IMG/VR virus record: IMGVR_UViG_3300034104_005543
Span: 1 to 64,000 of that record
Source: a virus
DNA length: 64,000 bases
Reading direction: 5' to 3' (one strand)
In this document: in pieces, positions 1 through 6,772 of the stretch
Position numbering within the stretch: position 1 is the first letter of the stretch
Layout: each line of letters starts with the position of its first letter
Notes under the pieces: generated by a model
The model's database searches: none
Seen by the model: the letters and a program-made list of their open reading frames with translations, nothing else
What the model was told of the DNA's origin: nothing
Made by a program: the position numbers and the translations under genes

Positions 1-113
1 GCAGACAATACGACATCCTGAGTTTTTGGATTAATTAATACTTGACGGCAATTGCCATCATCGAACTTTCCAATAATTACTATGTGCTTTAATTTTGGTT
101 CTTTCTTTGCCAT
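1..113 (-). CDS. Partial hypothetical protein, cut by left window edge
   Basis: The frame opens at ATG 113 (MAKKEPKLKH...) and is still open when the window ends, after 37 codons. It is Lys-rich at the start, followed by a hydrophobic beta-like stretch (HIVIIGKFDDG). No family recognised. The 50 bases before it share a pattern (CTAAC, ATATACGC, CCCGTATAAA, ATGG) with the stretch before the mini-ORF at 996-1049, so it appears to be the next member of the cassette-like array. Confidence 0.6.
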   Translation of the reverse strand, partial: MAKKEPKLKHIVIIGKFDDGNCRQVLINPKTQDVVLS

Positions 114-178
114 GATAGTTTATACGGGTTTAAGGGTGAATTGTTGCGGGTTGCGTATATTTATTGTTAGGTGAAATG
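114..178 (-). repeat. Cassette-boundary half-site (attC-like left half)
   Basis: Immediately after the stop of the 76-aa gene the minus strand reads CACCTAAC, matching the integron R'' core RYYYAAC. It then has ATATACGC ... CCCGTATAAA, a short inverted pair. The same arrangement follows the YopX-like gene (1040-1103). No matching GTTRRRY partner is visible before the next ATG, so only half of a site is supported. Confidence 0.4.
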
Positions 179-409
179 CTATGAAAGCAACTCGTTGATA
201 ACATTATTAGCCCTATCTACCACAAATTGCGGTGGATAACATTCACCAGCATTTATGTAATCTCTTTGTGAATTGACAGACACATCTTTTAGCAATTCAC
301 GTTCTTGTTCAATCAATCGTTTTTCATTTTTATTTAGCCAAGTAACAAGGCTTCTAATGTTATCAACTGATTTAACTCTTTCAATTAGTTCTTGTGTTGA
401 AGTTTTCAT
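179..409 (-). CDS. Small hypothetical protein in cassette array (76 aa)
   Basis: Start chosen at ATG 409 (MKTSTQELIERVK); the longer frame from 445 would begin with TTG inside the attC-like site. The protein is mostly charged and helical, with a heptad-like stretch IRSLVTWLNKNEKRLIEQE around residues 20-38, and ends NVINELLS. No family recognised. Its stop codon abuts an R''-like CACCTAAC, and its start lies about 30 bases after the GTTAGGTGCA core of the upstream site, the geometry of a one-gene cassette. Confidence 0.65.
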   Translation of the reverse strand: MKTSTQELIERVKSVDNIRSLVTWLNKNEKRLIEQERELLKDVSVNSQRDYINAGECYPPQFVVDRANNVINELLS

Positions 410-432
410 ATTTTCAAAATTTGTGAGAAGCA

Positions 433-572
433 CTGCACCTAACAAGGTATTGCCAAAAGCAGGGCGTTCTCGGTTAATTAATCGTTTTTAATTCTATTGG
501 GTATTTGTGCAAGGTTGAAACTTTTGTCTTTCAAATCCCTGCCTTCGGCAATACCCGAACCGTTAGGTGCAA
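433..572 (-). repeat. attC-like recombination site (best copy)
   Basis: On the minus strand the ends are TGCACCTAAC (561-570) and GTTAGGTGCA (435-444), perfectly complementary and matching the integron cores RYYYAAC and GTTRRRY. Just inside are GGTATTGCC-GAA-GGCAGGG and CCCTGC-TTTT-GGCAATACC, complementary apart from G-T pairs. Unequal spacers (CGGTTCGG versus TT) separate the two stems, and a variable central loop of roughly 75 bases follows. Total about 140 bp, within the known range for attC sites. It lies between two small genes of the same strand. Confidence 0.7.
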
Positions 573-616
573 CCGTAAGACCGCTCCGAAGAACAGTCCT
601 ACGAACACACAAATTA

Positions 617-955
617 CTACTCGAAAGAGCGTACAACTGAAATAAACAAAGCGTCTTTTGTTTGTTGGTCTTTCGGCAATTGCTCGTAAGCAACAATACA
701 AGGGTGTTCTTTTGTTTCTGGATTTTTCACGTCTCCAAATTTCCAACCATCTTTTAATTTCTCAGCCATCCAATTGTTATGGCTGTCACACGGTTTTGAA
801 TTTGGGTTTGATAAATGGAAGTTTACGCCATTAACAGCACTCTCTTTTTGCCATTGTGGAGCATTTTCCCAACTTGGTTGTGATAAATCTCCAATGCTTT
901 CACAAAATGCCTTGTTTACTTCGTGGCACGTTTTTGCAATTTGTTCTATATTCAT
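617..955 (-). CDS. RyR-domain-like small protein
   Basis: 112 aa starting at ATG 955 (MNIEQIAKTCHEVNKAFC). The segment NWMAEKLKDGWKFGDVKN followed by HPCIVAYEQLPKDQQ and KDALFISVV is the pattern of the RyR domain (named from the ryanodine receptor) found in many phage and mobile-element proteins, where it is a small putative ligand-binding module. The exact role is unknown. It lies between two attC-like sites; the stop is about 45 bases before the R'' core of the 433-572 site. Confidence 0.7.
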   Translation of the reverse strand: MNIEQIAKTCHEVNKAFCESIGDLSQPSWENAPQWQKESAVNGVNFHLSNPNSKPCDSHNNWMAEKLKDGWKFGDVKNPETKEHPCIVAYEQLPKDQQTKDALFISVVRSFE

Positions 956-995
956 AATATTTATGGATTTTACAAAGCCCGTCCAAGGCTATATT

Positions 996-1049
996 TTAAA
1001 GAACGGCAGGTAACACAGGTTTTGCGCCAGTTTGTTTTTCTTTTTCCAT
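996..1049 (-). CDS. Mini-ORF (17 codons), doubtful
   Basis: ATG 1049 opens a short frame (MEKEKQTGAKPVLPAVL) ending in TAA at 996-998. Its leader resembles that of the partial gene at the left edge. The GTTACC core of a weak attC-like boundary falls inside it, so this may be non-coding site sequence and not a peptide. Confidence 0.25.
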   Translation of the reverse strand: MEKEKQTGAKPVLPAVL

Positions 1050-1104
1050 TTTACTTTATACGGGTTGAAAGGTTACAGTTGCGTATATTCTTTTGTTAGC
1101 GGCA
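1004..1104 (-). repeat. Weak attC-like boundary
   Basis: The minus strand has GCCGCTAAC (1095-1103) right after the YopX-like stop and GTGTTACCTGCCG near 1003-1016 before the RyR-like gene. The outer cores pair only partly and the inner stems are poor. It is listed because it sits exactly at a gene boundary in line with the two better sites. Confidence 0.35.
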
Positions 1105-1107
1105 ACC

Positions 1108-1446
1108 CTAAAAGACATTCCCGATAACAACAGTATCTTTACCAATTGCATCTAATATAGGTATTGTTTCGCTATCTTCGGGGTGTTTATAAACTGAAAC
1201 AAACATACCATCTTGAAATTGCACTGTAGAAGAATAACCAGGACAAATATGTAATTGGTCTCCTTCAAAAATTTCAGTTCCGTTTTTGTCCTTATATCCA
1301 GTTGATTGCCTTACGTATTTTATTGGTAAAACATTCCATACATCACATTTCTGATGGATGTTAGGTATTTCGTGCAAGTGATAAACCTTTTTAATAGTTC
1401 CGTTTACACTTTCAAATCCGTATTCAAATTTTATTTCTCTTTTCAT
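1108..1446 (-). CDS. YopX family protein
   Basis: 112 aa with start at ATG 1446 (MKREIKFEYGFESVNG). The diagnostic YopX segment YVRQSTGYKDKNGTEIFEGD is complete at about residues 43-62, followed by the usual beta-rich C-terminal half. YopX proteins are common small phage proteins of unknown biochemical function. The longer frame from 1488 would start inside the flanking repeat. The stop codon TAG abuts a CGCTAAC core. Confidence 0.8.
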   Translation of the reverse strand: MKREIKFEYGFESVNGTIKKVYHLHEIPNIHQKCDVWNVLPIKYVRQSTGYKDKNGTEIFEGDQLHICPGYSSTVQFQDGMFVSVYKHPEDSETIPILDAIGKDTVVIGNVF

Positions 1447-1471
1447 TTTTATTTGATTTGTGAAGAAGGGC

Positions 1472-1552
1472 AGCCGATAACAGCACATACACGCTATTTT
1501 TCCGCCCTCAACCCAACGCTCACAGCGTGTATCTGCAAAACGTTATGTGCAA
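1472..1552 (-). repeat. attC-like recombination site
   Basis: The minus strand carries GCACATAACG (1541-1550) and GTTATCGGC (1473-1481) as outer cores. Inner arms are GCAGATACACGCT and AGCGTGTATGTGC, 12 of 13 positions complementary. Asymmetric spacers (GTTTT versus T) separate the stems and the loop is 28 bases. Length about 80 bp. It starts within a few bases of the stop codon of the Zn-ribbon gene, as attC sites do. Confidence 0.65.
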
Positions 1553-1554
1553 GG

Positions 1555-1893
1555 CTACAATACATTTTCAAAATAAACCATATTGGTACAATTAGGACAT
1601 TCTAATTGATTAATCCCCAGTGGTCTTACAGCGAACCACTTTCTATTACACAAGTCGCATTTTACTTCTGATGCTTCATGTGGGTCGTAATCAGGTATAA
1701 ATATTCTGGCAATGTCCATTATTTTTTCATCGCTTGAATAATCTTCATTGCAAATATCAATTATCACCCGTTTGTAATGGTCGTTAATGTGCTTTGAAAT
1801 AGCATTATACATTTCAGGTGCTATTGAAACTCCTCCACGCTTGTAGTCTTGTTGTTGGAATTTTTTAAGGGTATCAATTATTTGTTCTTCCAT
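1555..1893 (-). CDS. Small protein with C-terminal zinc ribbon
   Basis: 112 aa from ATG 1893. The N-terminal two thirds are helical; the C-terminus has CDLC (about residues 79-82) and CPNC (about 98-101), a four-Cys zinc ribbon. No family recognised beyond that. It is the first cassette of the array next to the phage backbone. A GTTACCAGCTGG core lies at about 1930-1940, upstream of its start. Confidence 0.65.
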   Translation of the reverse strand: MEEQIIDTLKKFQQQDYKRGGVSIAPEMYNAISKHINDHYKRVIIDICNEDYSSDEKIMDIARIFIPDYDPHEASEVKCDLCNRKWFAVRPLGINQLECPNCTNMVYFENVL

Positions 1894-1927
1894 TTCGTTT
1901 CAAATTAAATTTAGTGCTGATAAACCG

Positions 1928-1942
1928 CCCAGCTGGTAACAT
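1928..1942 (-). repeat. Array/backbone junction core
   Basis: The minus strand reads ATGTTACCAGCTGGG, aligning with GTTATCGGCTG (1473-1481) and GTTACCTGCCG (about 1003-1014) at the other cassette starts. No R'' partner is visible upstream. It is therefore a plausible insertion point of the array next to the 205-aa phage gene. Confidence 0.35.
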
Positions 1943-1975
1943 AGTGGTGTTGAAAGGTGTCATATTGGTTTATAA

Positions 1976-2593
1976 TCAATAAAATTGTTTGTCTGTATTT
2001 TCTGAAGCCCATTTATCTTTACTCTCACAATGAAACTTAGTTGTGTTCAGTTTGTAATCAGGTATTGTAGCAAATGGTTTTTCTACTCCTGATGGTTCTG
2101 CCCATAGAATTCTATTATTAGGGTAAGCACAATAGTAACCGTCAAACAGTTCTATTATATGTGCTACCTTATGTTCCTGGGTGATTTCAGCGTAGGAAGT
2201 AGATATTACATCTGATGAATCGCTGTTCCAATCTATGGTAAATCTATAAATACCCTCTTTGATTTGCTTGTTTTTTAAATAAACAGAACACCGTTTACCT
2301 TTAAGAAACATAAACTCTATTGCTTCAGCTTTGTATGAAAAACAATCCCACAACTGCAATACATCAAAAGATAAGTGTTCTGACACAGGTCTATATCGAG
2401 GTATTATAGCACTAATAGGAATTTTATCATACACAGCGCCAATGTCTGTCATTACATAAAATAACAAAGCATTTGACTGCAGTGATTTAACTGCAAACGC
2501 AGTTGCTTCAATAAGTTCATCGTGTTTTTCTTTAAAGTCGTACAAATACTCTGCTCTGACAAAGCATTCTAAAGGAGGAATATTAACGTTCAT
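1976..2593 (-). CDS. Hypothetical phage protein (205 aa)
   Basis: The frame starts at ATG 2593 (MNVNIPPLECFVRAEYLYDF). It is a mixed alpha/beta, acidic, soluble protein without visible signal or membrane segment; a central stretch reads YRFTIDWNSDSSDVIST and it ends ENTDKQFY. No family recognised. It is the first ordinary-looking phage gene next to the cassette array and follows the radical-SAM gene by 22 bases, so both are probably one transcript. Confidence 0.7.
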   Translation of the reverse strand: MNVNIPPLECFVRAEYLYDFKEKHDELIEATAFAVKSLQSNALLFYVMTDIGAVYDKIPISAIIPRYRPVSEHLSFDVLQLWDCFSYKAEAIEFMFLKGKRCSVYLKNKQIKEGIYRFTIDWNSDSSDVISTSYAEITQEHKVAHIIELFDGYYCAYPNNRILWAEPSGVEKPFATIPDYKLNTTKFHCESKDKWASENTDKQFY

Positions 2594-6133: not shown

Positions 6134-6547
6134 TTATTTATTTTTTAATCCTTCCCTATATCTTTTAACCATCATGTTATTGATAGCTTTACATTCATCA
6201 CATCTACATCCTCTTAGATAAGCACCTCTACTTGGATGTTTTTTTAATTTCTCTGTATCTATTCCTCCTAATGGTTTAATTCTTTGTTTATCAAATCCAT
6301 CTTGCCAATTATTTTTAGGAGAACCTAAAAATAAATGATTAGGGTTTACACATTTTCTATTATCACAAGTGTGACAAACATACATTCCATTAGGAATTAC
6401 ACCATTATGTAATTCATAAGATATACGATGTGCATCTATAACTTTGCTATTAAGTTTAAATGCACCATATCCTGTTTTCCCTCTAATAGCTGCTGTCCAC
6501 AACCAGCAAGTATCAGTCTTTTCTACTTTGTCAAAAAATCTTTTCAT
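6134..6547 (-). CDS. HNH endonuclease (HNH_3 type)
   Basis: 137 aa from ATG 6547 (MKRFFDKVEKTDTCWLW); the longer frame to 6598 has a less likely start. CWLWTAAIRGKTGYGAFKLN, then AHRISYELHNGVIPNGMYVC, HTCDNRKCVNPNHLFLGSP and NNWQD form the classic phage HNH_3 domain with the H-N-H residues and zinc cysteines. A C-terminal RGCRCDECKA is a second Cys cluster. Probably a free-standing homing endonuclease: it lies next to the odd tRNA-like genes, a common homing target. Confidence 0.85.
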   Translation of the reverse strand: MKRFFDKVEKTDTCWLWTAAIRGKTGYGAFKLNSKVIDAHRISYELHNGVIPNGMYVCHTCDNRKCVNPNHLFLGSPKNNWQDGFDKQRIKPLGGIDTEKLKKHPSRGAYLRGCRCDECKAINNMMVKRYREGLKNK

Positions 6548-6639
6548 ATACTTATATTTTGTAGTCACAAATATACGAACCTTCTTGTTAAGAAACAAGA
6601 GATGTAGGAGATATTTCTACCTCCCACATACAACTTGTC

Positions 6640-6769
6640 TAGCCGAGGACAGGATTCGAACCTGTATAAAAGACAAGCAGTTAGCCCTCACGATTGTAAG
6701 AGGGTTAGGGATTATGTCTATTCCCACATTTAACATACCACTGCGTATACCAATTCCGCCACCTGACTA
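6640..6769 (-). tRNA. tRNA-Leu-like gene, abnormal structure (copy B)
   Basis: The minus strand starts TAGTCAGGTGGCGGAATTGG TATACGC, the 5' acceptor and D-arm of a class II leucine tRNA, and ends with a perfect T-arm (ACAGG TTCGAAT CCTGT, 6649-6665) followed by CCTCGGCTA. The acceptor halves do not pair properly. The 3' end instead carries AGACAAG, complementary to CTTGTCT before the T-arm. The central part is too long and holds hairpins CCCTC/GAGGG and GGGA/TCCC; no anticodon arm could be assigned. Could be a decayed, chimeric or intron-bearing tRNA, or a tRNA mimic. Confidence 0.45.
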
Positions 6770-6772
6770 GGT

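What the first reader, a model, noticed from the sequence alone, without database searches (positions are those of the whole stretch)
1..1975. Integron-like gene cassette array inside a crAss-like phage genome
Four complete small genes and one edge gene, all leftward, are separated by sequences with attC layout: R'' core near the stop, inner complementary arms with unequal spacers, R' core 25-55 bases before the next start. Two sites (433-572 and 1472-1552) are strong, two are weak. The gene contents (RyR-like, YopX-like, Zn-ribbon) are typical mobile accessory genes. The sites are visibly richer in G+C than the adjoining phage DNA. Cassette arrays are a bacterial integron hallmark and I know of few cases in lytic-type phages.
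Basis: partly seen in the sequence, partly recalled or inferred. Interest (0 to 1): 0.8.

Follow-up and report, generated by a model that had tools for sequence, protein, structure and literature searches.

The report
Swappable gene cassettes in crAss-like phage
A crAss-like bacterial virus carries a small array of exchangeable genes joined by integron-type recombination sites, of an unusual bulge-free kind that seems to belong to an undescribed integron-like system of Bacteroidota bacteria and their phages.

Summary
The array is real. Two of the four proposed sites (570-435 and 1550-1473, minus strand) are the only significant hits of an attC covariance model in the whole 115 kb phage record; the two weak sites are not detected and hold pieces of phage gene leaders. 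A sister phage, about 97% identical beside the array, shares three cassettes at 100% identity but has two other genes where this phage has YopX: gain and loss bounded by the sites. The phage is Crassvirales and encodes no tyrosine recombinase. Integron cassettes in virulent phages were already reported (Qi et al. 2023), so carriage alone is not new. What appears new is the kind of site: no extrahelical bases and a 5/1-nt spacer. The same architecture occurs in Bacteroidota beside a tyrosine-recombinase family that lacks the IntI-specific insertion; canonical IntI loci in the same phylum sample show only two-bulge sites. Relative to the site, genes lie on one strand in phages (47:3) and on the other in bacteria (51:6). 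I propose phage cassettes exchanged in trans by this recombinase family. All evidence is computational; no recombination was shown.

The parts
1..113 (-). Edge gene (MAKKEPKLKH...), 5' part; the sister phage has the full 62-aa gene (L017 9971-10159)
   Evidence: Sequence; 90% identity to L017; same gene with the AAACCCGTATAAA leader in phages L057-L067
116..170 (-). Proposed weak site: YAAC core followed by a phage gene leader; not an attC by model
   Evidence: No R1 hit; leader shared with intact phage genes
179..409 (-). Cassette gene, 76 aa, unknown function
   Evidence: ORF; 100% identical in sister phage
435..570 (-). attC-type site 1, bulge-free class, 5/1-nt spacers, helix of 20 bp
   Evidence: 46.3 bits, E 3.5e-9; z -6.0; structure; topology scan; with its leader 93.5% identical to five other viral contigs that carry other genes there
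617..955 (-). Cassette gene, RyR domain
   Evidence: PF02026 E 3e-10; up to 59% identical in 274 phage records
991..1098 (-). Proposed weak site: R''-like core, phage gene leader and truncated start MEKEKQTG, then GTTACC core; cassette border in the sister phage
   Evidence: No R1 hit; alignment with the sister phage
1108..1446 (-). Cassette gene, YopX; replaced by a 72-aa gene plus DUF3307 in the sister phage
   Evidence: PF09643 E 1e-10
1473..1550 (-). attC-type site 2, bulge-free class, 5/1-nt spacers, shorter helix
   Evidence: 33.1 bits, E 8e-6; structure; below the threshold of the topology scan
1555..1893 (-). Cassette gene, Zn-ribbon-like (CDLC...CPNC)
   Evidence: ORF; no Pfam or PHROG match
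1894..1940 (-). Left border: GTTACC core and conserved cassette leader GGCGGTTTATCAGCACTAAATTTAATTTGAAA
   Evidence: Exact 21-mer in 47 viral stretches, nearly all after an attC-like palindrome
1941..1974 (-). 34-bp repeat of the start of a phage gene (MTPFNTT); second copy on the far side of the array in the sister phage
   Evidence: L017 7686-7719 and 10179-10212
1976..2593 (-). Flanking phage gene (205 aa), first gene outside the array
   Evidence: 97.3% identical flank in the sister phage

Best explanation
Positions 1-1940 hold a recombinase-less (CALIN-like) cassette array in a Crassvirales phage. Its sites are a bulge-free class of attC: outer cores with G|TT, a helix of about 15-20 bp, 5/1-nt spacer asymmetry, no extrahelical bases. 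The phage gains, loses and swaps small accessory genes (RyR, YopX, DUF3307, Zn-ribbon) by site-specific recombination at these sites, catalysed in trans. The likely enzyme is a host- or co-infecting-phage-encoded tyrosine recombinase of the family found beside the same class of site in Bacteroidota; it is IntI/XerA-like and lacks the IntI-specific insertion. The moving unit in phages is inferred to be site + leader + gene, so each gene brings its own leader, with exchange at the outer R'' core. Shown: sites, array, gene gain and loss between sister phages, shared leader pool, linkage of the site body to its downstream side, association of site class with recombinase class. Inferred: catalysis, supply in trans, cut position, strand used.
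For: Two model hits only, both in the array. Cassette swap between sister phages with array parts 100% identical against 97.3% in the flank (0/1360 against 110/4160 mismatches, p 3e-14). Leader in 47 viral stretches after varied attC-like sites. No PF00589 recombinase in either phage. Bulge-free sites: 42 in 14/21 loci of the recombinase family, 59 in 33/47 viral loci, 0 in 20 canonical IntI loci; two-bulge sites 0, 0 and 16. R1 hits 42 against 0. Enzyme lacks about 31+10 residues of canonical IntI. Sites point toward the recombinase in 18 of 19 loci. Body linked to the 1-nt side, never to the 5-nt side.
Against: No recombination was observed. R1 was trained on the same site class, so its zero in canonical loci shows specificity, not absence of cassettes there (canonical sites are present). 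Several members of the recombinase family have no sites nearby. The sister-phage differences could also arise by homologous recombination between phages; breakpoints are within about 15 nt of cores, not exactly on G|TT. The weak sites and the 34-bp repeat are not explained. The viral linkage figure is inflated by choosing sites through their leader (2 against 0 of 9 pairs without them).
Confidence: 0.72

Rival explanations
1. Ordinary CALIN: cassettes captured with a canonical host IntI (TIGR02249 kind), as reported for other phages; the sites are just A+T-rich attC variants.
For: Phage attC sites tested in PMC9892861 worked with IntI1. Canonical integron integrases are common in the phylum sample (105 of 396 genomes over cut-off). 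R''/R' cores match.
Against: No two-bulge site in 47 viral loci, and no bulge-free site in 20 canonical IntI loci or 2 class 1 plasmids. The bulge-free class sits beside another recombinase family.
Confidence: 0.15
2. Passive inheritance: the array was taken once from a bacterial or phage array by homologous or illegitimate recombination, and the sites are inert. Differences between sister phages come from phage-to-phage homologous recombination using sites, leaders and flanks as homology.
For: Truncated gene starts and half sites at some phage/cassette borders, the 34-bp repeat around the array, breakpoints a few bases off G|TT, and array parts 100% identical between phages with diverged flanks, which is what recent horizontal exchange of either kind gives.
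Against: Many different site bodies with the same leader and different genes; no upstream linkage in any similar pair; conserved core and spacer geometry over diverged sequence implies selection on the sites.
Confidence: 0.1
3. Transcription terminators or RNA hairpins between genes that only resemble attC.
For: They lie between small co-directional genes and form long hairpins.
Against: Fixed YAAC/GTTR cores and 5/1 spacers; only two such sites in 115 kb, both in the array; no Rfam match; gene content changes at them; same class beside a recombinase family.
Confidence: 0.03

Closest known systems
Integron cassette arrays and CALINs in phages (Qi et al. 2023, PMC9892861)
   Same: Tandem small genes separated by attC-type sites in phages, virulent ones included, usually without an integrase; methyltransferase cassettes occur there and in the huge phage L002.
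   Different: They reported 17 CALINs with standard models, some active with IntI1. Here the sites lack extrahelical bases, genes are flipped relative to the sites, and the pool is wide in Bacteroidota phages. The site class of the 21 phages was not re-examined here.
Canonical integrons (class 1; Bacteroidota TIGR02249 loci)
   Same: R''/R' cores with G|TT, imperfect palindrome, unequal spacers, tandem cassettes; bacterial arrays of the new class have genes reading away from the recombinase, as do canonical ones by site orientation.
   Different: Two extrahelical bases present there and absent here; IntI additional domain present there and absent in the associated recombinase; no enzyme in this phage.
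XerA / XerC / XerD tyrosine recombinases
   Same: The recombinase L074 aligns end to end with XerA and XerC-like cores without an IntI insertion.
   Different: It is below the NCBIfam cut-offs of XerA, XerC and XerD, often has an extra N-terminal region of about 75 aa without a convincing Pfam match, and sits beside attC-like arrays.

Membership tests
Integron / CALIN | At least two attC-type sites within a few kb (R''/R' cores, palindromic arms) | tested here: met
   570-435 and 1550-1473, 0.9 kb apart, own covariance model; IntegronFinder and HattCI models were not available
Integron / CALIN | Tandem co-directional cassettes, one gene per site | tested here: met
   the two middle borders are degenerate
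Canonical attC | Extrahelical bases in one arm | tested here: not met
   No bulge in either window site; topology scan
Canonical integron | intI gene with the IntI additional domain | tested here: not met
   No PF00589 in the phage; the bacterial enzyme beside this site class lacks the insertion
Canonical integron | attI site beside the integrase | not tested
Integron / CALIN | Cassette gain and loss at the sites | tested here: met
   Sister phage G001; breakpoints within about 15 nt of cores, one comparison only
Integron / CALIN | Site-specific recombination by an integrase | not testable with these tools
   Needs an assay
Crassvirales | Crassvirus-type major capsid protein | tested here: met
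   PF23898, 115 bits, cut-off 27
Crassvirales | Terminase related to crAss-like phages | tested here: met
   Best tblastn hits are crAss-like 'uncultured phage cr...' records, 24-26% identity

The most novel reading that the evidence does not exclude
Bacteroidota and their phages share a second integron lineage: bulge-free attC sites served by a tyrosine recombinase without the IntI additional domain. Phages run it with genes in the opposite orientation to the sites and with a built-in leader, so that each unit is site + leader + gene and can be expressed wherever it lands.
Probability: 0.5. Interest if true: 0.92.

Novelty: new variant of a known kind. Interest (0 to 1): 0.78.

Why it matters
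Integron searches look for IntI with its special domain and for attC models built on known sites. Bacteroidetes had shown only integrases without cassettes in the first IntegronFinder survey and one complete integron (Salinibacter) in the second (PMC9024848). A bulge-free site class paired with an enzyme lacking that domain could explain part of this gap, suggests that the IntI additional domain and the extrahelical bases go together, and makes testable how cassettes are recognised without them. For phages it offers a mechanism for rapid modular swapping of accessory genes, in crAss-like and huge phages included.

Tried and rejected
Rfam scan of the window: nothing. I first read the bacterial arrays as transcribed toward the recombinase; checking ORFs showed that the sites point toward it while the genes read away from it, so that claim was dropped. 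An SSB gene next to the recombinase in L074 and L104 looked meaningful but is absent from the other loci. A covariance model of canonical attC was abandoned because the automatic alignment misplaced the arms; a topology scan replaced it. AlphaFold of the recombinase from one sequence was useless (mean pLDDT 38) and is not used. The element AACAATAAATATACGCAAC at the weak borders, tested as a possible general attachment site, occurs in only three viral stretches. Two of the four genome hits of the leader (Poribacteria, Oscillospiraceae) have no site in front and are taken as chance 19-mers. R1 zero hits in canonical IntI loci was first read as absence of cassettes there; a closer look found canonical sites that R1 cannot see.

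Full report
1. What is there. The window is the first 64 kb of a 115,486-base virus record. Its major capsid protein matches the Crassvirus family (PF23898) and its terminase is nearest to crAss-like records at 24-26% identity. At the left end, on the minus strand, lie an edge gene, a 76-aa gene, an RyR gene, a YopX gene and a Zn-ribbon-like gene. These are small accessory genes; RyR is common in phages generally (274 records).

2. Are the sites attC? I built a covariance model (R1) from 14 sites of other contigs, leaving out this phage and its sister. Over the whole record it finds two significant hits: 570-435 (46.3 bits, E 3.5e-9) and 1550-1473 (33.1 bits, E 8e-6); the next best is E 0.48. 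E-values from this model are rough. The other two proposed sites are not found. They hold a core followed by the leader AAACCCGTATAAA and a start codon. The same leader precedes intact genes in other phages, and in the sister phage one such gene start is cut off next to a cassette border.

3. Gene gain and loss. A sister phage (G001, IMGVR_UViG_3300035126_000842, 122 kb) is 97.3% identical over the 4.2 kb next to the array. Within the array, the Zn-ribbon, RyR and 76-aa units are 100% identical (0 mismatches in 1,360 nt against 110 in 4,160; p 3e-14). Where this phage has YopX, G001 has a 72-aa gene and a DUF3307 gene. Breakpoints lie within about 15 nt of site cores. Neither phage encodes a PF00589 recombinase.

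4. A shared pool. A 21-base piece of the Zn-ribbon cassette leader occurs exactly in 47 stretches of IMG/VR contigs, nearly all directly after an attC-like palindrome, with varied palindrome bodies and different genes. Of 43 records searched, most of them chosen through this leader or a neighbouring gene, 35 have sites at E <= 0.001 and 17 have a terminase over cut-off. Two huge phages (634 and 642 kb) have such sites too; in one, the neighbouring cassettes encode DNA methyltransferases. In 84,980 genomes a 19-mer of the leader gave four hits: one real cassette in a Bacteroidetes MAG, one CRISPR spacer in a Paludibacter MAG, and two matches taken as chance. Some short IMG/VR contigs may be bacterial; this phage and the terminase-bearing records are not in doubt.

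5. An unusual site class. In one search the sites from viral and bacterial loci nearly all share a 5-nt spacer inside one core and 1 nt inside the other, then a helix of about 15-20 bp, mostly without any extrahelical base, often with a mismatch at position 5 and wobbles at positions 11 and 14. Canonical attC sites (class 1 integrons and TIGR02249 loci of the same phylum sample) nearly all show bulged bases 6-7 bp apart in one arm. A scan that uses topology only separates them: bulge-free sites 42 (14 of 21 loci of the new recombinase family), 59 (33 of 47 viral loci), 0 (20 canonical loci); two-bulge sites 0, 0 and 16 (11 of 20 loci); shuffled controls 0-2 per set. The topologies were defined after looking at examples from these same sets, so this is a consistency test. 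The shorter window site, 1550-1473, lies below the threshold of this scan.

6. The enzyme on the bacterial side. The cassette of the Bacteroidetes MAG lies within 1 kb of a 352-aa tyrosine recombinase. Its best NCBIfam match is integron integrase, below cut-off (204 against 265 bits), and it lacks profile positions of about 182-237. By sequence its top solved structure is VchIntIA, again without that part, closely followed by XerA-like proteins. Aligned with canonical integrases it lacks about 31+10 residues before HxxR. In 20 loci of relatives R1 finds 42 sites; in 20 canonical IntI loci it finds none, though canonical sites exist there. Among loci of the form with an N-terminal region, sites point toward the recombinase in 18 of 19. 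A site also lies close to such a recombinase on a complete plasmid of the isolate Chryseobacterium sp. SNU WT5 (39.9 bits). Canonical enzymes form a separate clade (100/100; XerC and XerD were not included). Some members have no sites nearby, so the family is not dedicated to arrays. Viral contigs L009, L033 and L040/L049 carry a shorter relative beside their arrays.

7. Orientation. Taking the 5-nt-spacer side as the left end of a site, the longest adjacent ORF lies on the same strand in phages (47:3) and on the opposite strand in bacteria (51:6). In bacteria genes therefore read away from the recombinase, with a 1/5 asymmetry that resembles canonical attC (about 2/5). Phage sites are flipped relative to their genes. 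The strand that folds better is the 5-nt-first strand in both sets (43 of 52 and 45 of 57), with no such bias in canonical sites. That strand is the gene-complement strand in bacteria, as expected from integron biology, and the gene strand in phages. Pairs of sites with similar bodies often share sequence on the 1-nt side (bacterial 17 of 47, viral 56 of 60) and never on the 5-nt side, so exchange seems to occur at the 5-nt-side core. The viral figure is inflated because most sites were chosen by a shared leader; without those it is 2 against 0 of 9 pairs.

8. Mechanism. The most likely reading is a cassette array whose units (site + leader + gene) are exchanged in trans by a recombinase of this family from the host or a co-infecting phage. 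Catalysis, cut position, strand and direction of transfer are inferred. That IntI's additional domain contacts the extrahelical bases is my own knowledge of work on VchIntIA, not tested here; the joint absence of both is the most suggestive point.

9. Novelty. Phage CALINs, some functional with IntI1, are published (PMC9892861). I found no report of a bulge-free attC class, or of this recombinase family with arrays, in the papers I could search. Subscription papers and preprints are mostly not held, so this is a limited check.

Noticed in passing
L075 (JAAFGX010000017.1, Paludibacter MAG), positions about 1-1950: A CRISPR array with 47-nt repeats and mostly 30-nt spacers; one spacer equals the phage cassette leader (TGCTGGGCGGTTTATCAGCACTAAATTAAA), so a Bacteroidota host has met DNA with these cassettes.
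   Followed up: partly
window 1941-1974; L017 7686-7719 and 10179-10212: A 34-bp direct repeat, the start of a phage gene (MTPFNTT...), flanks the array in the sister phage; how it arose is unexplained.
   Followed up: partly
L017 8500-8550 and 9022-9071; window 1065-1015: Truncated gene starts with the AAACCCGTATAAA leader sit at cassette borders; one (MNEQTKLEIL) is intact in phages L057, L060 and L062.
   Followed up: partly
L009 7686-6886, L033 10250-9459, L040 4735-5532: Viral contigs with short XerA/IntI-like recombinases of the same family next to attC-type arrays; L009's contig also has a terminase.
   Followed up: partly
L042 5160-5320 and other leader-bearing loci: The shared leader forms an inverted repeat just after the core (GTGCTG-GGCGGTTTAT-CAGCAC); its role is unknown.
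   Followed up: no
L074 680-1015; L153 3939-4265: An SSB-like gene next to the recombinase in two related bacterial loci, not in the others.
   Followed up: yes
window 1 and record position 115486: The contig ends lie on either side of an accessory region that is about 5.7 kb long in the sister phage, so part of the accessory region may be missing from this record.
   Followed up: partly
window about 6640-6770, minus strand: Sequence that looks like a tRNA T-arm (GGTTCGAATCC), but ARAGORN calls no tRNA; possibly a degenerate or interrupted tRNA next to the HNH gene at 6134-6598.
   Followed up: no
L195 5997-6136 (Emticicia oligotrophica plasmid pEMTOL03): A site of this class (34.1 bits, E 1.5e-6) in a plasmid of a culture-collection strain, useful for bench work.
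   Followed up: partly
Bacteroidota genome sample, loci L173-L192: Canonical integron integrases over cut-off in 105 of 396 genomes, with two-bulge attC nearby in about half of 20 loci examined, more than the published surveys suggest; GTDB's Bacteroidota may include deep branches.
   Followed up: partly
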